A DNA stretch of 10,856 nt, taken from assembly GCA_019057975.1 (NCBI GenBank), contig JAHLWJ010000143.1, positions 1 to 10,856 on the forward strand, written 5' to 3'. The stretch is from Promethearchaeota archaeon. Its GTDB lineage: Archaea; Asgardarchaeota; Lokiarchaeia; Sigynarchaeales; SOKP01. Shown one piece after another: positions 294-10,456 of the stretch. The position numbers and the translations under genes are program-made. The notes under the pieces were generated by a model. It did no database searches and had not been told where the DNA came from. It saw only the letters and a program-made list of their open reading frames with translations. Numbering within the stretch: position 1 is the stretch's first letter; each line of letters starts with the position of its first letter.

Positions 294-806
294 TTATCTA
301 TTTTTTATTTTGAGATAACTATATCTTCCACCCGCGATAAGTGCGATCCCTAAAAAAAAGAACCCATAATTTGTATGGAAAAATGTGTAGCTAATTTTCA
401 GTTCTCTATGAAAACTTGAATCTTCGGATGGAAAATATAAAATATACATAGATTGGGTTATGGGAGGATTGAATGGAATCGTAAAGGTTAGTGTATCTGT
501 AATGTTACCTATCTGATAATAGGATTGGATATCCTGATCCTCAAATATCCATGCAAAATATGTGTCACGGTCAAGGACAACGAGCGACAAATTACCATTA
601 ACAATGGTTAAATTAAGTACGATTTGTTGATCGTATGATCTCCATGGCAGGTTAAATTCGTCAGTAACATAACTCCCAGGATTTACATTTGTAATACCTT
701 CTGCGGGATAAGTTATGGTTTTCGGAAAAGGAACAAGTAAGAGAATTATACTTGTTATTGAAAAAAATAGGATAATAAATTCTTGCTGCGTTATCTTTCT
801 ACTCAT
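294..806 (-). CDS. Membrane-anchored protein with beta-rich outside domain, third gene of ABC operon
   Basis: This is a 170-residue protein of unknown function. Residues 9-26 form an N-terminal hydrophobic segment (signal anchor or uncleaved signal), residues 32-145 are a beta-strand-rich domain with sequons NLT, NLS and NIT, and residues 147-161 are a second membrane helix followed by a short basic tail (RYSYLKIKNR). The layout, with an outside beta domain held close to a C-terminal helix, resembles archaeal GOLD/emp24-like proteins, but that is only a resemblance. There is no lipobox cysteine. The start is well supported: GAGGTG (808-814 region) overlaps the TGA stop of the permease gene and lies 2 nt before the ATG, with 6 nt between the genes, so translation is probably coupled. 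Its place after the ATPase and permease suggests an accessory or substrate-contacting subunit of the exporter. Confidence 0.8.
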   Translation of the reverse strand: MSRKITQQEFIILFFSITSIILLLVPFPKTITYPAEGITNVNPGSYVTDEFNLPWRSYDQQIVLNLTIVNGNLSLVVLDRDTYFAWIFEDQDIQSYYQIGNITDTLTFTIPFNPPITQSMYILYFPSEDSSFHRELKISYTFFHTNYGFFFLGIALIAGGRYSYLKIKNR

Positions 807-812
807 TGCACC

Positions 813-1616
813 TCAAACCCGAATATCTATCATTTTAAATTCAAAATATGTTACGATAAAAAGAATTATTGGCAGTCCAAAATACATAATAAAACTAAAA
901 ACCAATAACGGGAAATCGTTGATAATGTAATTGGTGGCTTTGACATCCGAAAAAAAAGAGTAAAGTATATTCCCATAATTATCGTAAGAAAGAAGTGCCA
1001 TGTCAAGCTCTACAAAAAAGTCACCAAAATATAGGTAAAAAAAGGGGACCAAAAAGGCAACAAAGCTATTCCGAGTCAGAGCCGATAAGAGAAAGGAAAA
1101 CGAGGCATAGAATAACAAATGGGCTAATACAAGGACATATCCAGTGATAAGATAGGTAAAACTAATTACAGCGTGAAATAAGAGGAGGGTAGCCATTATT
1201 AACGATATCCAGAGGAGAGAAGTATAAATTACCAAAGAAATTACTATAAATTCTATTTTGGCTCGTATCATTGCTTTTCGACTAATATTAGTATAGAGCA
1301 CTATTGCTGTTCTATTAGAAAATTCGCCTGAAACTGAGTCAGCGGTAATTATAATAGCGATTAACGGTAAAACGGGTAGAAATTGATTATAAAAGAGCTC
1401 CCCCATGAAATCTCCCCAAAATAATGCGTTATTTATGAAATTTGGATGGAGTTCCATCGTAGGATTAATACAATCTTCATAACGGAGTATTAAATCGAAA
1501 AGGGGAAGGAAAAGGAGAATAAGGCATAGAATGGTTCTAATCGATAAGAATCTCTTTCTAAAATAAAATTGATTAAGAACGATGTCATTTTTTAGCGGAT
1601 TTTTTTTCCCTCTTAT
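813..1616 (-). CDS. ABC-2 type transporter permease, probable AUA start
   Basis: Membrane subunit of an ABC exporter. From the first ATG (1457) the protein is only 214 residues and lacks its first helix. The same frame is open upstream to a TGA at 1623-1625 and encodes a basic N-terminus (RGKKNPLKND, then FRKRF) and a clear helix (RTILCLILLFLPLFDLIL), the normal start of an ABC-2 permease. With this extension there are six predicted helices and the usual ABC-2 motif after helix 2 (DSVSGEFSNRT, followed by SRKAMIRAK). The extension contains no ATG, GTG or TTG. The best start is ATA at 1616-1614: it lies 6 nt after GGTGA and overlaps the ATPase stop as ATAA, one base away from the common ATGA arrangement. 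That gives 267 residues. ATC (1619) or ATT (1622) are alternatives with worse spacing. The family call is firm; the exact start is inferred. Confidence 0.82.
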   Translation of the reverse strand: MRGKKNPLKNDIVLNQFYFRKRFLSIRTILCLILLFLPLFDLILRYEDCINPTMELHPNFINNALFWGDFMGELFYNQFLPVLPLIAIIITADSVSGEFSNRTAIVLYTNISRKAMIRAKIEFIVISLVIYTSLLWISLIMATLLLFHAVISFTYLITGYVLVLAHLLFYASFSFLLSALTRNSFVAFLVPFFYLYFGDFFVELDMALLSYDNYGNILYSFFSDVKATNYIINDFPLLVFSFIMYFGLPIILFIVTYFEFKMIDIRV

Positions 1617-2557
1617 GATAATTCACCCTGTGTAAAAATATGTTTGTATAATCGGGTCAAAGTTCCAGTAATTGGTTTTAAGCTAAAATCTTTGAAAGTT
1701 TCTATAATGCGGTTTATTTTTTCAGGGTTATGAGAATTAAATATTATTTTTTCATCCAGTACTTTGGGGGCATTCATTAGCGTATTATCTTTGCTCTCAA
1801 TTATTTCTTTTAATTCTCTTAAAGAGATTTTTGATTTTGTATTGATCTGGGTGATTTCATATTCATTAAATCCGACTGCATTAGATAAATGAATATAATT
1901 CCCATATTTGATAATTTTTCCCCCATCTATAAACGCTAACTCCTCTGCTAATTGTTCAAGTTCTAGGATTATATGGCTTGAAATTACAATGGCAATACCC
2001 TGTTGCCGTTTTAACCTAATTTTATGAATAAGATCGTCTCTTCCCAATGCATCTATATTAGAAAGAGGCTCGTCAAGAAAAACTATTCTTGGATTACCCG
2101 CAAAAGCTTGAGCCAATCCTAACCGCTGTGTCATCCCCCGTGAAAAGGTTTTAACATTTTTATCCCAATATTCTTGCTTAAGACCACACCATTTTAACAA
2201 TGACTCAACTTCCTTATTAGTACATGGCTCATTTCTTATTTTTAATATTAATTCGAGATGTTTACGAGCTGTTACCTTTGGATAAAATCCCACATTTTCT
2301 GGTAGGAAACCTATACGATCCCGTACTTTATCAATCCCTTTTTTAATATCATGGGTTAACATGAACGCAGTGCCGCTTGTTGGCTTTACTAATCCGAGCA
2401 ACATCAAGAACGTTGTGGTTTTACCTGCTCCATTTGGACCTAATAAGGCGAAACATGAATCCTTGATAATTAGGTTAATATTATCGACAACAAATTTGTT
2501 TTCGTATTTTTTCGTAAGATCTTTAATCTCAACAACAGAATCTGCAGTTAGAACCAT
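1613..2557 (-). CDS. ABC transporter ATP-binding protein (ABC-2/exporter type)
   Basis: This 314-residue cytoplasmic ATPase drives the adjacent permease. It shows Walker A GPNGAGKTT (residues 40-48), a Q-loop region GFLPE (83-87) with Glu in place of Gln as in many exporters of this group, a signature FSRGMTQRLGLAQA (138-151, SRGMTQ in place of LSGGQ), Walker B IVFLDEP (158-164), D-loop SNIDALG (166-172) and switch His195 (SSH). After about residue 225 comes a C-terminal extension typical of CcmA/NatA-like ATPases paired with ABC-2 permeases. It is the first gene of the operon and its stop codon overlaps the proposed permease start. No clear Shine-Dalgarno site precedes the ATG, and a TATA-like element about 32 nt upstream suggests a leaderless or very short-leader mRNA. 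The substrate cannot be read from the sequence. Confidence 0.93.
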   Translation of the reverse strand: MVLTADSVVEIKDLTKKYENKFVVDNINLIIKDSCFALLGPNGAGKTTTFLMLLGLVKPTSGTAFMLTHDIKKGIDKVRDRIGFLPENVGFYPKVTARKHLELILKIRNEPCTNKEVESLLKWCGLKQEYWDKNVKTFSRGMTQRLGLAQAFAGNPRIVFLDEPLSNIDALGRDDLIHKIRLKRQQGIAIVISSHIILELEQLAEELAFIDGGKIIKYGNYIHLSNAVGFNEYEITQINTKSKISLRELKEIIESKDNTLMNAPKVLDEKIIFNSHNPEKINRIIETFKDFSLKPITGTLTRLYKHIFTQGELS

Positions 2558-2893: not shown

Positions 2894-4462
2894 ATGAAAC
2901 TAAAAGTAAAAAAAATTAATTACCAAACGGGAAATCCTAAAAGTGTAGTTATTAACATTCAAGATGCTCAGGAGTTAGGACAAAAAGCAGGGGAAAGGAT
3001 TGTGATTAAAAATATGCAATCTAAATCTATCGAAGATAAGTATTGGGTGGCAATAATGCAAATAGACTTCTCGAGAAAAATTGTAGAGCGTGGTGAAATT
3101 GGATTATTTCTTGATATTTTTAATGAAAAGAAAGAATTAAAAGATGGGGTAGAACTTTCTGTAAAACCTGCTGATCGCCCCAATTCTTTCAAATTCATCA
3201 AGAAAAAAGTAAATAATCAAAAATTAAATTCTGAGGAATTAACCAATATAATTTCAGATGCAGTCTCAGGTTTACTTTCAAGAATCGAATTAGCTTCATT
3301 TATAACCAGTGTTGCAATAAACGGCATGGATAAGGAGGAGATGACTGCTCTTACAATGGCAGAGGCACGAAGTGGGGATATTTTTGATTTTGGACCAAAT
3401 ATCTACGATAAACATAGTACAAAAGATTATGCTTCATAGTCTTTACTAAAAGGCGGGGTCCCCGGAAATAAAGTTTCACTTATTATTGTGCCCATAATTG
3501 CAGCAGCTGGTTTAACAATACCTAAGACTTCAACTAGAGCTATTACATCACCATCAGGAACCGCAGATTCAATGGAAGTTTTAGCGCCTGTGATGTTTAA
3601 TTCTAATGAATTTAAAGAAATACTCCTTAAAGAGAAGGGTTGTATAGTTTGGGGTGGTGCTCTTGATTTAGCTCCAGCTGATAACATTTTAATTGAAATT
3701 GAGCGACCTTTAAGTATGGATCCACTTGGACTTCTTATTCCATCTGTGCTTAGCAAAAAATTAAGTGTCGGTGTTAAAAAACTCGTATTAGATATTCCAG
3801 TTGGCGAAGGAACAAAATTTCCAACTCTAGAAAGCGGACAACAATTTGCTTATGTTTTCAAAGAGATTGCGCAAAATGTTGGGATACAAGCAGAGTGTGC
3901 CTTAACTTTAGCTCATCAGCCCATCGGTCATGCTATAGGACCTGGTTTAGAAGCTAAAGAGGCTTTAACCTTACTCAAAGATTATACTGCTGGTCCAAAT
4001 TCTCTAATTGAAAAATCTACAGATTTAGCCGGTATTTTGCTGGAAATGGGGGGAAAAGCTCAAAAAGGAAAAGGTCAAAGTTTAGCAAAAGAAATACTGC
4101 GTTCAGGGAAAGCATACGACAAAATGAAGAAAATAATTGAAGTTCAGGGTGGCAATCCAGAAATAAAACCTGAAGGTATTAAATTAGGACCACATTCTAA
4201 AGAATTTTTCGCTACAAAAGCTGGCCACATAACTGGTGTAAATAACTCGATTATTAATCAGATAGCGAAAGCTACTGGTTGTCCCCATTCAAAACAATCA
4301 GGTGTTGAGATTTATAAAAAACAAGGAGCAAGAATTAAAGAAGGGGATTTAATCTTTAAGATATATTCTGACAGCCAGAATAGAATGAAGAAAGCTGAAA
4401 AAATTTATAATTCAACCGGTGGGCCAATAATTCTTGGCGGAATGATGATTGAAAGGATTTGA
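2894..4462 (+). CDS. deoA: AMP phosphorylase (archaeal DeoA family), interrupted by a 30-nt bulge-helix-bulge intron
   Basis: Cytoplasmic enzyme of the thymidine phosphorylase superfamily. Archaeal members convert AMP (also CMP, UMP) and phosphate to the base and ribose 1,5-bisphosphate, which feeds R15P isomerase and type III RuBisCO. The unspliced frame meets TAG at 3437-3439 and reopens in the same frame, where a caller would start a second gene at GTG 3488. Removing 3421-3450 joins 2894-3420 to 3451-4462 as one 512-residue protein, close to the roughly 500 of the family. Residues 1-85 are the archaeal N-terminal domain, about 90-165 the helical domain, then DKHSTGGVPGNK (172-183), PKTSTRAITSPSGTADSME (200-218, family signature), VWGGALDLAPAD and a C-terminal domain from about residue 430. 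All catalytic-region motifs are intact on both sides of the break, so this is not an obvious decayed gene. AMP specificity rather than another nucleoside is inferred from the archaeal architecture. Confidence 0.9.
3421..3450 (+). other. Candidate archaeal mRNA intron (bulge-helix-bulge type, 30 nt)
   Basis: The 5' exon end 3415-3418 (TAGT) pairs with 3445-3448 (ACTA) as a perfect 4-bp central helix. Bulge 1 is ACA (3419-3421), bulge 2 is AAA (3449-3451). Inside, 3422-3430 pairs with 3436-3444 in a 9-bp helix with one G-U pair and a 5-nt loop GCTTC. Archaeal splicing endonuclease cuts between the second and third bulge nucleotides; here that removes 3421-3450 and rebuilds AC+A, a Thr codon, giving DKHSTGGVPGNK. 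The outer exon helix of the full motif is not evident, so this would be a relaxed form. The intron carries the only in-frame stop (TAG 3437-3439). No homing endonuclease is present. Splicing itself is inferred. Confidence 0.85.
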
Positions 4463-4801: not shown

Positions 4802-7800
4802 TTACCCATTAATGCCATGAGTTAATAAATTTTTCATTGATAAAATTCTTATGTTCATTAAGAGTTTCTGCCTATTAGACAATAAATCCTTGATTTGTTC
4901 ACAAACTTCAATAGCATCTTCAATAAATCCTATTATGATTAGTTGATTTGCTAATTTATTAATGATACCGACTTTTTCAGTATCATCTTCAATAATATTT
5001 CTGGTTATTTCTATGGTCTTTATATAATAATCCCTTGCTTTAGTATACTCTCCCCTTATTTCTGCAAGCCTTGCTAACCCATACATTGAAAATCTATTTC
5101 CTTTCTTGCTTCTATTAAGAGCAATCTCAGCTTCATACAAAAAATCAAGTGAATTATTTAATTTTCCAATCTCTAAATACAAATTCCCAAGTTGACTCCA
5201 AGATGTTGAATTTCTATAATTATTATTAAGAGAATATAAAAAACATTTAATTAATATATCAGGGGCTATTTTAATTATGGATTCCTTGCTGATACCAACT
5301 AGATTGCCCCCAGTTTGCCCCCATTTTTTAGATAGTGCCTCGTTTTGATGAAACAGCTCTCTAATTGACATGGTTAAAAAATATAAGGCAAAAAATGAAG
5401 ATTTAGTAAAATATAAATGTTCAATTATATTATCTGTTTTCTCAGCTATCGTTCTTAGCCCTAACGAAGCATATAAATAATCTTTTGAGAGATGGGGTTC
5501 AAATTTGTCTAATAATTTTTCCATTTCTCGTGGTAAATAAAATCCAAGCTCTCGAGCTCTCCATAAATAGCTTTTTATAATGATAATTGAAATCGGAATT
5601 CTATTTAGTAAAGTTATATCAGATATATAATCTTCTTCTTTAAAAATAACGCTCAATATCAGAGAAATATCAAGGGTGTTCCTGATACTTATCAATTTTT
5701 TACCAATTTTATAATTATACCTCGCAAGTTTCTGCTGACTAATCTTACCACTCTTTGCCCCTAATTTTAACATTAATCTAAGTCCTTTTGAAATTTCATT
5801 TTTAACTCTAATTGCTTTTCTACATTTGATAATTAAATTTTGTATGTTCTCTTTATCAACAGACGACTCTAAATTTATAAGATTTTTTAAAATATTAACA
5901 GCTTCTTCAAACTTACCCTGTTTAATTTTCACTTTAGATAGATTTGTCAAACTCTGCGTTAATCTATACTCCCTTCGTATTAATTCTTTAAAACAATCAT
6001 AAGCATATTCATTCTCATTGTTAGTTAGAAATAAACTTCCAAATTCATCAAGTTGATCATTTGTTATGAGTTCCAAAGGGAAAAATATATCAATATATTC
6101 TTTTGAAATCTCTAGCATACGATTTAATTCACCTAATTTCTCACTAGTTTCAATATTTAATTCCATTAGCTCTTTAACTCCAATTATTTCTTCACTAAGC
6201 ACTTTAGATTTAAGAGTATTTAATTTTTTAAACCACATTTTACAAACATCTTGAAGAATGAAAATTTGTTGAGATCTAGAATCTAAGTCTGAATATTCTA
6301 GTTTCAACTCTTCATATAACCGAGTATCTTGTAACATTTGTATCCATTCTGCCAAAATTTCATTAGCTTTTTTAAACAATTCTATGGCATAATCCATTTT
6401 TTCATAAAATACAGATCTACCCAGATCGATTAAATCTTTAGAATAATTAATGTTTTCTTCCAAATATTCAAAAAAAAATTGCTTTTTTTGTTCCACCATT
6501 TTTTCAGAGCAAGTTTTTATAATCTCTAAACATTTTATCCACAACGGATCAAAATGTTGCTCAAATTTATCTTTTATATCGGTTTGAATTAAGTTTCTGA
6601 GCATTTTAAACTCGTAAAATGATTTTGATATTTTAATAAGTTTATCATATGAGTTAATTGATTTTTTTATATTTTCCTCGAAGTTTTTTTCATCTACGAT
6701 TTTAGAATAACATCTAGCTAATCTTAAAAGTATTTGATAATTATTTTTTTCTATTTCAGCAGCACTTTCGAAGAAATTGAGAGCTAATTTCGGATGTTCT
6801 TCAATATAATCATCTCCTATATTTATTAAATCTGCAAAAAGGTATTCTAAGCTCCATCCAATCTTCTTGGCAAATTTTACAGCTTTTTCAGCATATTTAC
6901 TCGCTTTTTTTGACGCTTTTATGCCCTTATAATAATTAATATATAAGATTGATAACGATTGATAAACGCTGCATAGATGTCGATAAGAAAAGTTGTTTTC
7001 TTCGATATTTTTAGCTTCCTCTAGATTCTCTTTAGCTAATCTAATTAGTTCTTTGCTCCATTCGACTTCTTCCTCCTCAATTTCATTTACCCAATCCATA
7101 TATAGACGACCAAGTTCATTCTTACAAGATGCTATATGAATTTTAGGGTTTACTAGTAATATAACATTATCATTATTAGCTGATTTATTAAGTAAATCAA
7201 CAGCTTCTTCGAATAACTTTTGTTTTTCAGAGTAATCTTTAACCTTTTTCATTTTGTACTTATAAAGGAAACGTGCAAGTATATGTTGGGAAATTGGATT
7301 GTTAACATCCCTTATAGATTGCCTTAGTAGACTTTCAGCTATTTCTATATTCTTACCATATTGATTGCCTGGATATCTATCTTTAAGTCTCCAACCAATT
7401 TTGATTAAAAAATCGCAATAGCTATTGATATCTCTGGGATTTCGATATTTATTTACTATCTTTTTCCAGATGTTATCAGCTTGAATGTCAAATTTAATTT
7501 TTTTATTATAATCTTCTGCTTTTCCTGCTAGGTCAATTAGAAAGTTTGCATATGCATTTAATAGTTCTCTTTCTGAGAATCCTGATCTTTCTGCTATAAT
7601 CTTTCCTTTTTCAAACAACCGAAGCGCTTTATCTAGGTATTGCTTAGCTTTTTCTCTTTTAACATACCATAATATATCTCCCCTCTTTTTACAGAAATCA
7701 CCATATGACAATAAAATAGGAACGGAGTCATTACTTAACTCGTAAGCTTCTTCAAAATACTTTTCTGCTTCATCAAATTCTCCTATTTTTTTATAAAAAT

Positions 7801-10456
7801 TTGCTCGGGACTGTCTCGTAATCTTATCCTTTTTATCCATATCTACTAATTCATTATAGAAATTCTTAATAATGTTAACAATTCCTTCACTTTCTTCTTT
7901 CGTAGCATTAGCTAGTTTTCTTTCTAAAAGCTGTGTATATGTATGAAGTGCTAATTTAAATACCTTGATTTTAAGCGCTTCTTTAATATATGTTTCAGCT
8001 TCTTCAAAGTTTCCTATTTCTCTTAAGTACAAGGCAGCTATGAACCATGTAAGTGATAATTCAGTTCTAATATAATTCAAATAAAATTCTGAAAAATTTA
8101 TTTTAGAATTTAAATTCTGAAACATTTCTGTACAATATGAAAGTTCTTTATTATCAAGTTTAGCCAGATCAGTAAGAAGTATAGCATATAAGTAATCGTA
8201 ATGGCCATCTAAATTCATTTTTAAGTAATTTTTTACAACTTCAATGAATTCATCTTTTTTAGAACCATAACTTCTTAAAACCGTGGAAAATTGCTCTAAT
8301 GATTTAAATGGTAAAGCGAGGTTATCAGGTTTATTTAATCCATAATTGATACTTTCTTTCCATATGTCATCAAGGTGAAACCGATCTATTTTTAAACCTA
8401 ATTCTATTTTTTTAGAACTATCATCCTTTGAATCCTTATAAATAAACGGTTTAGGGATTAAATATGATTTTAACATTGCCAGTTTATTCAGAATTTCATT
8501 AAGGTTAGCTTCTGTTGAAATTCTCTTGTTATACCATTCAATAAAGAATAATAAGAACTCAAAAGAAAGTGATAGACTTACCCTTTGATTCCGTAGCATA
8601 TTCAGGACATAAAATAATGATTTATTATCTTTTATATAAAATTCTCCATCCATAGTATAGAAAATTAGATTTGTCATTCCTAGGGGTGTTTTTTCAACTT
8701 CATCTTTTGAAAAAGGGCGATTTTCGAGACTTAGCATTTTAACAAAATGATGAATATAATATGGTAATCCTCCTTCACTTTTTTCGTGTAAAAGTTTAAA
8801 TTCTTCAGCAAATCCGTTATTTTCTAATTCTGGTACAAGAATAACATTATAAAAATCCAAATATTTTTTTAAGATAATCTCTGTACTTACCTTTGAGGGG
8901 CGAATCTCGTATGGAATAGCATGGAATACCACTCTTGATGGAAATTCTTTTTGTAAAATCTTAAAGTGGGAATCTCTTAAAGTCATTATTACCTTAAAAT
9001 TATTTCCAACAATAATATCACAAATAGATTGAAATTTTTTCATAAAACTAGTATAATTATCATTTTCTCGATAAAAAGCATCAATAGCGATTATGGTATT
9101 TTTAGAGTCAAATTTTTCTAATTGCTTGACAATTTCATTGCCATCCCATTTTCCCTTGTCTGGATTTAAGAAGACAACAGTTTTAAACCAGCAATTTTCT
9201 GAGGATAAGCACCTATCTAACCAGTAAAATAAATATGTGGTTTTTCCCACACCATATTTTCCAATAATAAAATATATAGAAAAGTAAGGCTGGTCCTCAT
9301 AAGGAAATTCAACCCAACTAAAATCAATGATTTCTTGTTTTAATGTTTGCCAGTCAAGTATCTTTCCACCTAATATATTAATAAATTTCCCACATAACCT
9401 GTTTTCAAGATAATATCCTTTATCTTCTAATTCACATAACTCTGTAGAATTAGAAATTGGATCAGAAAAGTGTTTAAACTTTAATGCCTCTTCTTCAGGT
9501 TCCTCATATTTTTGTATTTCATTTCCTCTCAAATGTTTTTTAATAAAATCAAGATCTGATCGTACAATTTCATCATGTTCCTGAAGTCTCTCATCATGTT
9601 TTAAAATACTTGACGATAAAATCTTAATTTCCTCTTTATCTATCGCAATCTTTTGAATAATTTCTTTAAAAATCTCGTTTACTAATTCTTTAGGCTTTTG
9701 ATAGATGTTATATAATAGATTGTATAATTCGTTTATTGAGCTCTTAATAAAATCTAATTCGGTTTTCTCTTTATTAAAAAATTGTTTCTGAGTCTCTGAT
9801 AACCTAATTTCAAGTGTATTCATTATCTCAACTATTTCATTTTCGAGAAACGCTTGAGATTTCTGAACAGTAAGAAAGATTTGGATTAAAAATAAATCAG
9901 ATTCTTGAGTTTCTAAAAAAGTCATTTGAATTATTTCAGAAATATTCTTATAAATCTCTTCATCTGTTTCTTTAGGATCTATTTGGGGTATGAATAATAT
10001 TCTAAAAACACTTTTATTGTCTAAGGATTCCTTCAAAAAGTCATTCCATACCTGAAAGGTTGTTATTTTTCTAAGAGAACATCTTAAATTTTCTAAATAA
10101 CCTCTCATGTAATCCAAGTCTGCATTTTGCTCAAAAAATGTTTTAATTTTCTTTCGAGCTTTCCTTGAATCATGGTGAATTTCTAATCCAAAACCTAGGA
10201 CCCAGCGTCTTAAATAATCCTCATATTGTTCTTTTTGTTTCCCATGTAAAACTTGCTCCTTGAAAACATTGATGACTCTCTCTAGTGCTCTTTTACCAAC
10301 TGTTCTATTGAAATACCATTTTTTAAAACTTTCAATAAGTTCTTTTAATCCATATCCCAAAGCCCTACCTAATAATGTGCCAAATGCATCTAGAAAACAT
10401 TGACCAATAAGTTCCAAAATATCTTTATAAGAATCGTTAGGATTTTTACTTTTCAT
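4802..10456 (-). CDS. Giant STAND-type P-loop NTPase with TPR-like repeats (1884 aa)
   Basis: Probably a signal-transduction NTPase that oligomerises after ligand sensing. Residues 1-155 are a helical N-terminal region of no recognised family, opening with a Gly-rich amphipathic helix (about 12-40) that could be an effector or membrane-active segment. About 165-325 is charged and probably coiled coil. The NTPase core has Walker A GKYGVGKTT (399-407), Walker B NTIIAIDAF (453-461, Asp459), an Arg after a strand (KVIMTLRD, Arg494, sensor-like) and GGLP (562-565), the GxP motif typical of STAND proteins. About 585-780 would be winged-helix or linker. From about 800 to the end are degenerate TPR-like helical pairs, clearest at 804-830, 884-910, 1752-1782 and 1793-1818. 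No transmembrane helix or known nuclease motif is seen. It stands alone, with its own promoter and terminator. Roles in antiviral defence or regulation are both possible. Confidence 0.85.
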   Translation of the reverse strand: MKSKNPNDSYKDILELIGQCFLDAFGTLLGRALGYGLKELIESFKKWYFNRTVGKRALERVINVFKEQVLHGKQKEQYEDYLRRWVLGFGLEIHHDSRKARKKIKTFFEQNADLDYMRGYLENLRCSLRKITTFQVWNDFLKESLDNKSVFRILFIPQIDPKETDEEIYKNISEIIQMTFLETQESDLFLIQIFLTVQKSQAFLENEIVEIMNTLEIRLSETQKQFFNKEKTELDFIKSSINELYNLLYNIYQKPKELVNEIFKEIIQKIAIDKEEIKILSSSILKHDERLQEHDEIVRSDLDFIKKHLRGNEIQKYEEPEEEALKFKHFSDPISNSTELCELEDKGYYLENRLCGKFINILGGKILDWQTLKQEIIDFSWVEFPYEDQPYFSIYFIIGKYGVGKTTYLFYWLDRCLSSENCWFKTVVFLNPDKGKWDGNEIVKQLEKFDSKNTIIAIDAFYRENDNYTSFMKKFQSICDIIVGNNFKVIMTLRDSHFKILQKEFPSRVVFHAIPYEIRPSKVSTEIILKKYLDFYNVILVPELENNGFAEEFKLLHEKSEGGLPYYIHHFVKMLSLENRPFSKDEVEKTPLGMTNLIFYTMDGEFYIKDNKSLFYVLNMLRNQRVSLSLSFEFLLFFIEWYNKRISTEANLNEILNKLAMLKSYLIPKPFIYKDSKDDSSKKIELGLKIDRFHLDDIWKESINYGLNKPDNLALPFKSLEQFSTVLRSYGSKKDEFIEVVKNYLKMNLDGHYDYLYAILLTDLAKLDNKELSYCTEMFQNLNSKINFSEFYLNYIRTELSLTWFIAALYLREIGNFEEAETYIKEALKIKVFKLALHTYTQLLERKLANATKEESEGIVNIIKNFYNELVDMDKKDKITRQSRANFYKKIGEFDEAEKYFEEAYELSNDSVPILLSYGDFCKKRGDILWYVKREKAKQYLDKALRLFEKGKIIAERSGFSERELLNAYANFLIDLAGKAEDYNKKIKFDIQADNIWKKIVNKYRNPRDINSYCDFLIKIGWRLKDRYPGNQYGKNIEIAESLLRQSIRDVNNPISQHILARFLYKYKMKKVKDYSEKQKLFEEAVDLLNKSANNDNVILLVNPKIHIASCKNELGRLYMDWVNEIEEEEVEWSKELIRLAKENLEEAKNIEENNFSYRHLCSVYQSLSILYINYYKGIKASKKASKYAEKAVKFAKKIGWSLEYLFADLINIGDDYIEEHPKLALNFFESAAEIEKNNYQILLRLARCYSKIVDEKNFEENIKKSINSYDKLIKISKSFYEFKMLRNLIQTDIKDKFEQHFDPLWIKCLEIIKTCSEKMVEQKKQFFFEYLEENINYSKDLIDLGRSVFYEKMDYAIELFKKANEILAEWIQMLQDTRLYEELKLEYSDLDSRSQQIFILQDVCKMWFKKLNTLKSKVLSEEIIGVKELMELNIETSEKLGELNRMLEISKEYIDIFFPLELITNDQLDEFGSLFLTNNENEYAYDCFKELIRREYRLTQSLTNLSKVKIKQGKFEEAVNILKNLINLESSVDKENIQNLIIKCRKAIRVKNEISKGLRLMLKLGAKSGKISQQKLARYNYKIGKKLISIRNTLDISLILSVIFKEEDYISDITLLNRIPISIIIIKSYLWRARELGFYLPREMEKLLDKFEPHLSKDYLYASLGLRTIAEKTDNIIEHLYFTKSSFFALYFLTMSIRELFHQNEALSKKWGQTGGNLVGISKESIIKIAPDILIKCFLYSLNNNYRNSTSWSQLGNLYLEIGKLNNSLDFLYEAEIALNRSKKGNRFSMYGLARLAEIRGEYTKARDYYIKTIEITRNIIEDDTEKVGIINKLANQLIIIGFIEDAIEVCEQIKDLLSNRQKLLMNIRILSMKNLLTHGING

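What the first reader, a model, noticed from the sequence alone, without database searches (positions are those of the whole stretch)
3415..3451. Minimal 30-nt bulge-helix-bulge intron inside a protein-coding gene (AMP phosphorylase)
Seen: the conserved loop DKHS-x-GGVPGNK is split by exactly 30 nt bearing an in-frame TAG, and the reading frame is otherwise continuous with all family motifs. The interruption and its flanks fold as a 3-nt bulge (3419-3421), a perfect 4-bp helix (3415-3418 with 3445-3448), a 3-nt bulge (3449-3451) and a 9-bp hairpin (3422-3430 with 3436-3444). Known: archaeal tRNA splicing endonuclease cuts such bulges between nucleotides 2 and 3, and a few archaeal mRNAs (cbf5 is the classic case) carry such introns. 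Inference: cutting at these sites removes 3421-3450 and restores DKHSTGGVPGNK and a 512-residue enzyme. Structure and protein logic pick the same cut sites independently. A tiny intron in a salvage enzyme, lacking the outer exon helix, would be unusual, and such genes would routinely be misannotated as two fragments.
Basis: partly seen in the sequence, partly recalled or inferred. Interest (0 to 1): 0.95.

Follow-up and report, generated by a model that had tools for sequence, protein, structure and literature searches.

The report
Spliced mini-intron in Lokiarchaeal enzyme gene
In this Lokiarchaeota-like DNA the gene for AMP phosphorylase, a nucleotide-recycling enzyme, is interrupted inside a conserved loop by 30 bases, and 12 related genomes carry an insert of 29 to 31 bases at the same point with base changes that preserve one RNA fold; the insert is predicted to be cut out of the messenger RNA by the enzymes that splice transfer RNAs, which would make it one of very few introns known in archaeal protein-coding genes.

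Summary
Confirmed and extended. Removing window 3421-3450 restores DKHSTGGVPGNK and a 512-aa AMP phosphorylase (589 bits to TIGR03327, cutoff 535; halves 119 and 453). Twelve other genomes of the phylum carry an insert of 29-31 nt at the same base. On the 13 sequences RNAalifold returns the claimed bulge-helix-bulge unprompted: 8 of 13 pairs have changes on both sides, two of them exon-intron pairs. All 13 inserts hold an in-frame stop; the 29- and 31-nt ones also shift the frame. Of 104 database N-fragments with the motif, 98 end 1-8 residues after it. On a 66-gene tree the intron is patchy: old and often lost, or gained repeatedly. The 12 genomes encode the splicing endonuclease EndA (two matches in 10) and, in 11, the ligase RtcB. 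RtcB itself carries BHB-like inserts at two sites, in 2 and 4 genomes. The size is ordinary (cbf5 introns 16-44 bp); the motif is the relaxed form without outer helix. No RNA was examined: excision is inferred. New member of a known kind (EndA-spliced mRNA introns); the paper searches made listed no Asgard case.

The parts
2894..3420 (+). exon 1 of AMP phosphorylase (codons 1-175 and two bases of Thr176)
   Evidence: translation; TIGR03327 profile 1-165 for the N-terminal ORF
3421..3450 (+). predicted 30-nt intron, in-frame TAG at 3437-3439
   Evidence: absent in the 6 relatives, present in 12 other genomes at the same site
3451..4462 (+). exon 2 of AMP phosphorylase, stop codon included
   Evidence: TIGR03327 profile 167-500
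3415..3418 (+). 5' strand (exon) of the 4-bp central helix, TAGT
   Evidence: 100% of cells paired in 13 sequences, 2 of 4 pairs with changes on both sides
3419..3421 (+). 5' bulge ACA, predicted cut between 3420 and 3421
   Evidence: EndA rule as stated for cbf5 in PMC2738675
3422..3430 (+). 5' strand of the 9-bp inner helix
   Evidence: 98.3% of cells paired, 6 of 9 pairs with changes on both sides
3431..3435 (+). hairpin loop; 4 and 6 nt in the 29- and 31-nt versions
3436..3444 (+). 3' strand of the inner helix
3445..3448 (+). 3' strand (intron) of the central helix, ACTA
3449..3451 (+). 3' bulge AAA, predicted cut between 3450 and 3451; not closed by an outer helix

Best explanation
The 30 bases at 3421-3450 are most likely a BHB-type intron in the AMP phosphorylase messenger RNA, predicted to be cut out by the archaeal tRNA-splicing endonuclease EndA, with the exons then likely joined by the ligase RtcB. 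Shown: the insert lies inside the codon of Thr176 in the conserved DKHS-T-GGVPGNK loop; similar inserts sit at the same base in 12 other genomes of the phylum; the exon-intron helix and the inner hairpin covary; all 13 inserts hold an in-frame stop; removal restores the loop in all 13. Inferred: the host has both enzymes (seen in relatives), EndA cuts between nucleotides 2 and 3 of each bulge although there is no outer helix (relaxed HBh' motif), and RtcB joins the exons. Unspliced RNA would give only a truncated protein of about 181 residues.
For: Insert absent in the six relatives but present in 12 others at the same site, 29-31 nt. RNAalifold predicts this BHB without being told it; 98.8% of cells paired, 8 of 13 pairs with changes on both sides, slides 32-51%. 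Two exon-intron pairs covary through synonymous His and Ser codons. The Ser175 codon is AGY, which the helix needs, in 13 of 13 intron genes against 15 of 39 intronless Loki-type genes. G110 (29 nt) and G157 (31 nt) shift the frame, so translating the insert cannot work; 13 of 13 carry in-frame stops. Joined protein 589 bits to TIGR03327 (cutoff 535), halves 119 and 453. 98 of 104 database N-fragments with the motif end 1-8 residues after it; the nearest kin listed (90-97%) are halves only. EndA matches in 12 of 12 intron genomes, two matches in 10; an alpha-like and a beta-like subunit in G124; RtcB in 11 of 12; tRNAs with predicted introns in G157. A BHB insert with 4-bp central and 9-bp inner helix also interrupts RtcB in G110 and G145.
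Against: No RNA evidence of any kind. The window's own genome is not held, so its EndA and RtcB were not seen. No outer helix: the first outer position does not pair in 13 of 13. The central helix is AT-rich, and a neighbouring register is the minimum-energy fold of the window alone. G107 has the intron but no RtcB match (may be an incomplete MAG). The distribution is patchy: at least 10 gains or losses on the tree, and 33 of 500 label shuffles need as few.
Confidence: 0.93

Rival explanations
1. Programmed translational bypassing: the ribosome hops over the 30 nt, helped by the hairpin.
For: Small hairpin inserts with stops are what bypass elements look like (recalled). It also tolerates lengths of 29-31 nt.
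Against: Take-off and landing triplets match in only 1 of 13 (G154; ACA or ACT against AAA or ATT in the others), while known bypass uses matched codons (recalled). Bypass does not explain exon-intron covariation or two 3-nt bulges.
Confidence: 0.03
2. Gene fission: two separate polypeptides assemble into the enzyme and the insert is an intercistronic hairpin.
For: Databases hold both halves as separate proteins. C-halves of 338-339 aa could start inside the insert (inferred from length).
Against: The break is inside the DKHS-T-GGVPGNK loop. In the window the first listed start of the second ORF is GTG 3488, which drops GGVPGNK. The helix pairs exon with intron, and removal of the insert restores the codon in 13 of 13.
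Confidence: 0.03
3. Assembly error, or a decaying pseudogene with a chance insertion.
For: Single contig; own genome not held.
Against: Same site in 12 other genomes, one of them on a contig of 381,755 bases (G157), and in database halves of 90-97% identity. The exons stay intact.
Confidence: 0.01
4. The insert is translated, with TAG read as an amino acid.
For: 30 nt is a multiple of three here.
Against: TAG, TAA or TGA in different relatives, and lengths of 29 and 31 nt.
Confidence: 0.005

Closest known systems
cbf5 pre-mRNA introns of Crenarchaea (PMC2738675; passages and section 8 read)
   Same: Short intron (16-44 bp) in a protein-coding gene, mostly unconventional BHB, cut rule between bulge nucleotides 2 and 3, breaks a catalytic codon, patchy with inferred losses, hetero-oligomeric EndA
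   Different: Another gene (AMP phosphorylase) and another phylum; the paper reports spliced cbf5 mRNA, while no RNA was seen here; cbf5 is uninterrupted in 12 of 12 intron-bearing Loki genomes
HVO_1309 5'-UTR BHB in Haloferax volcanii (PMC7714728; passages)
   Same: EndA cuts a BHB in an mRNA
   Different: Lies in the 5' UTR, not in the coding sequence
Archaeal tRNA introns, relaxed HBh' type (PMC6379350 and PMC4090602; passages)
   Same: 4-bp helix, 3-nt bulge, inner helix; relaxed forms are cleaved by (alpha-beta)2 and epsilon2 EndA
   Different: mRNA context without the tRNA body or anticodon stem
12-bp putative introns in an archaeal virus (as reported in PMC2738675)
   Same: Short inserts in coding genes of archaea
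   Different: 12 bp, splicing not shown there; here 29-31 nt with a covarying structure

Membership tests
EndA-spliced BHB intron in an archaeal mRNA | Interrupts a protein-coding gene and exact removal restores the conserved ORF | tested here: met
   13 of 13 restore DKHSTGGVPGNK; joined window protein 589 bits to TIGR03327
EndA-spliced BHB intron in an archaeal mRNA | 4-bp central helix between exon and intron with 3-nt bulge at the 5' site and inner helix | tested here: met
   pairing and covariation
EndA-spliced BHB intron in an archaeal mRNA | Junction agrees with cuts between bulge nucleotides 2 and 3 | tested here: met
   (structure and reading frame only, no cleavage assay)
EndA-spliced BHB intron in an archaeal mRNA | Host encodes EndA and an RNA ligase | tested here: inconclusive
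   own genome not held; 12 of 12 intron relatives have EndA, 11 of 12 RtcB
EndA-spliced BHB intron in an archaeal mRNA | Spliced RNA observed | not testable with these tools
   no transcript data
Strict canonical hBHBh' motif | Outer helix closing the 3' bulge | tested here: not met
   first outer position unpaired in 13 of 13; two pairs follow in 10 of 13, one in 3; filed as relaxed HBh'
Programmed translational bypass | Matched take-off and landing codons | tested here: not met
   1 of 13 match
Group I or II intron | Catalytic RNA core | tested here: not met
   30 nt; no Rfam family at gathering score in the window

The most novel reading that the evidence does not exclude
Tiny EndA-type introns are an ancient, recurring feature of Asgard messenger RNAs, placed in conserved codons of RNA and nucleotide enzymes. 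They include the RNA ligase RtcB itself, whose mRNA would have to be joined by its own product, so that splicing acts as a feedback switch on both RtcB and AMP salvage.
Probability: 0.3. Interest if true: 0.92.

Novelty: new member of a known kind. Interest (0 to 1): 0.82.

Why it matters
A 2020 paper counted cbf5 as the only further archaeal mRNA reported with such an intron (PMC7714728, passages); other protein-coding cases had only been predicted (PMC2738675). A conserved case in Lokiarchaea, plus inserts in RtcB, would put protein-enzyme mRNA splicing in the archaeal phylum close to eukaryotes. It would explain scores of half-proteins in databases, and it offers a natural series of presences and absences with a ready assay (EndA on short RNAs).

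Tried and rejected
Further copies of this intron: model R1 over the 12 intron genomes found one strong match in each, the AMP phosphorylase site (50-56 bits); the next best had E 0.086. Only 150 of 7,292-13,098 first-look candidates per genome were scored.

De novo scan for BHB plus ORF-joining. (0.8 Mb of G157 and G124): 72 hits, 194 decoys; only the AMP phosphorylase hit was clear. One search, with looser limits, was noise and its output was cut; not used. One search, strict, 1.37 Mb of G110, G085, G157 and G124: 10 hits, 3 decoys; 3 hits are the AMP phosphorylase inserts of G110 and G157 and the RtcB insert of G110, but those stretches had been fetched because they hold them, so they are positive controls, not new finds. 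I judged the other 7 by eye as wrong-frame or neighbouring-gene artefacts. So the scans found no new intron. They miss weaker motifs such as the RtcB insert of G085.

first tested the G082-G085 RtcB insert at 27 nt and found no motif; at 30 nt it has one. Other stop-bearing AMP phosphorylase rows (G100, G103, G039, G169, G170) have no insert at the site. Structure prediction and fold search were not used.

Full report
WHAT IS THERE. The window holds an AMP phosphorylase gene on the + strand. Its reading frame runs from ATG 2894 to TGA 4462 apart from 30 nt at 3421-3450 that carry an in-frame TAG. Removing them gives 512 aa and restores DKHSTGGVPGNK. The joined protein scores 589 bits to NCBIfam TIGR03327 (cutoff 535); the two halves score 119 and 453. 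It aligns without a gap at the junction to a solved relative named putative thymidine phosphorylase (4ga5). The insert breaks the codon of Thr176 in a conserved loop (its catalytic role is recalled).

WHOSE DNA. The six loci found in genome contigs are Lokiarchaeota MAGs, 76-81% identical in protein, and none of the six has the insert. No genome is held for the window itself.

THE INSERT IS CONSERVED. The joined protein matched 161 of 227 genomes of the same phylum. I read the insertion site in 69 fetched genes besides the window; the others were judged only by the match lengths and stop counts that one search listed, and its list was cut. Twelve genomes (G107, G108, G110, G120, G121, G124, G125, G128, G130, G132, G154, G157) carry an insert at exactly the same base: 30 nt in ten, 29 nt in G110, 31 nt in G157. 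All 13 inserts, the window's included, contain an in-frame stop (TAG, TAA or TGA), and removal gives ACA or ACT (Thr) in 13 of 13.

THE STRUCTURE IS SELECTED. Counted on the BHB, 98.8% of 169 cells pair, 8 of 13 pairs have changes on both sides, and the covariation score is 0.492 against 0.265 in shuffles (0 of 500 as high) and 0.045-0.099 in slid versions. Relatedness inflates the shuffle test; the slid controls keep it. The first and last pairs of the central helix join exon to intron and covary: U-A to C-G in G132 and G128 (His CAT to CAC), and C-G, U-G or U-A at the third base of the Ser codon. Ser175 is AGY in 13 of 13 intron genes against 15 of 39 intronless Loki-type genes; Fisher p 6e-5, ignoring relatedness. 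The structure alone would not have been decisive: 15 of 107,760 test placements in this AT-rich window pass the same filter, 2 of them this site.

DATABASE TRACE. A search with the 181-aa N-terminal ORF found 111 proteins; 104 hold the DKHS motif, and in 98 of these the protein ends 1-8 residues later; the other 6 run on into TGGVPGNK. Some may end early because a contig ends, and some are the same genes as above (P0067's record has the length of G125's contig); I did not sort these out. Source names include 'hypothetical protein' and 'AMP phosphorylase'. One such half, P0089, lies on a record of 1,826,018 bases. A search with the joined protein gave 1603 hits, best 120 listed: no full-length protein above 80% identity, but seven C-terminal pieces at 95-97% (P0216-P0220, P0222, P0224). 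With the N-halves P0001-P0003 (90-96%), all nearest kin that were listed are halves. The tails of window and P0001-P0003 (TKDYAS, TKDYIS, TKDYFS, TKDYIP) differ only in the two codons that cover the hairpin loop.

HISTORY. A maximum-likelihood tree of 66 genes needs at least 10 changes of the intron label, 9 forced by starred branches; 33 of 500 label shuffles need as few, so the label is only weakly clustered. Intron-bearing G110 branches first within the 48-row group that holds all 13 (97/77). Rows left out: duplicate loci L001-L006 and L055, the paralogue-like L052-L054, and the short L076. The intron sequences resemble each other, so I favour one old gain and repeated exact losses, as argued for cbf5 (PMC2738675, section 8). 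Repeated gain or transfer was not excluded.

MACHINERY. EndA (PF01974) was found in 221 of 222 genomes. The 12 intron genomes all have it: two matches in ten, one in G121 and G128. In G124 the 198-aa subunit aligns best to EndA chain 3p1z and keeps the His aligned there; the 206-aa subunit lacks it in its alignment to 1a79, fitting the alpha-beta type. That type cleaves relaxed motifs (PMC6379350, passages). RtcB was found in 11 of 12; G107 had none. On contig C12 of G157, 5 of 8 tRNAs found by ARAGORN have predicted introns.

A SECOND GENE: RTCB. In G110 the RtcB match was split in two frames. The cause is 29 nt inside GGVGY-DINCG with a TTGG/CCAA central helix, two 3-nt bulges and a 9-bp inner helix; removal restores GGVGYDINCG. 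G145 has the same insert with changes in the loop and the 3' bulge. Four more genomes, G082-G085, hold a 30-nt insert with a stop at LPD-AHQGYG; the cut rule restores LPDAHQGYG in 4 of 4, the central helix CCCG/CGGG is complete in 3 of 4, and the inner helix is good in two and poor in two. RtcB matched 203 of 222 genomes (match list cut); I looked closer at 26 picked for split, long or weak matches or stops, and read the inserts in these six only, so others may exist. That RtcB would join its own mRNA is inference.

HOW RARE. A model of the AMP phosphorylase intron found no second strong match in the 12 genomes, with only 150 candidates per genome scored. The strict scan of 1.37 Mb gave 10 hits and 3 decoys; the 3 real hits were already known. 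cbf5 matched without a stop in 12 of 12.

WHAT IS KNOWN. cbf5 introns are 16-44 bp, mostly unconventional BHB, and break a catalytic codon; introns in other protein-coding genes had been predicted by 2009 but not confirmed (PMC2738675, passages and section 8). A 2020 paper says that besides its own 5'-UTR case only cbf5 had been reported (PMC7714728, passages). Searches for Asgard with bulge-helix-bulge, Lokiarchaeota with intron and splicing endonuclease, AMP phosphorylase with intron, Asgard protein-coding introns, RtcB with intron and BHB and cbf5 introns since 2010 listed no paper whose title or abstract start shows such Asgard mRNA introns. The library holds open-licence papers only, and no preprints. 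So the size and the relaxed motif are ordinary; gene, phylum and breadth are new as far as these searches show.

VERDICT. The insert is a conserved BHB-type intron by structure, covariation and protein logic. Cutting and joining in the cell are inferred.

Noticed in passing
L163 and L179 (G110), L177 (G145): RtcB gene interrupted by 29 nt at GGVGY-DINCG with a complete 4-bp/3-nt/9-bp BHB; removal restores the motif.
   Followed up: yes
L167, L168, L169, L191 (G085, G083, G084, G082): RtcB gene interrupted by 30 nt with a stop at LPD-AHQGYG; central helix CCCG/CGGG complete in 3 of 4.
   Followed up: partly
G014, G034, G035, G036, G037, G038 RtcB: RtcB matches split by about 1.4-1.5 kb of open frame at profile positions 42-76, near the GYDINC site, which looks like an intein; not examined.
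   Followed up: no
window 4802-10456, - strand: 1884-aa protein with TPR repeats and a GKYGVGKTT P-loop-like stretch, possibly a STAND-type NTPase (class recalled).
   Followed up: no
window 294-2557, - strand: ABC transporter ATPase (PF00005), a weak ABC-2-type membrane protein match and a 170-aa protein without Pfam match in a row.
   Followed up: no
P0011, P0037, P0054, P0069: Intron-type N-halves from records named Thorarchaeota, Hodarchaeota or Odinarchaeota, at 66-70% identity to the window; the labels may be wrong or the intron may be wider. Not resolved.
   Followed up: no
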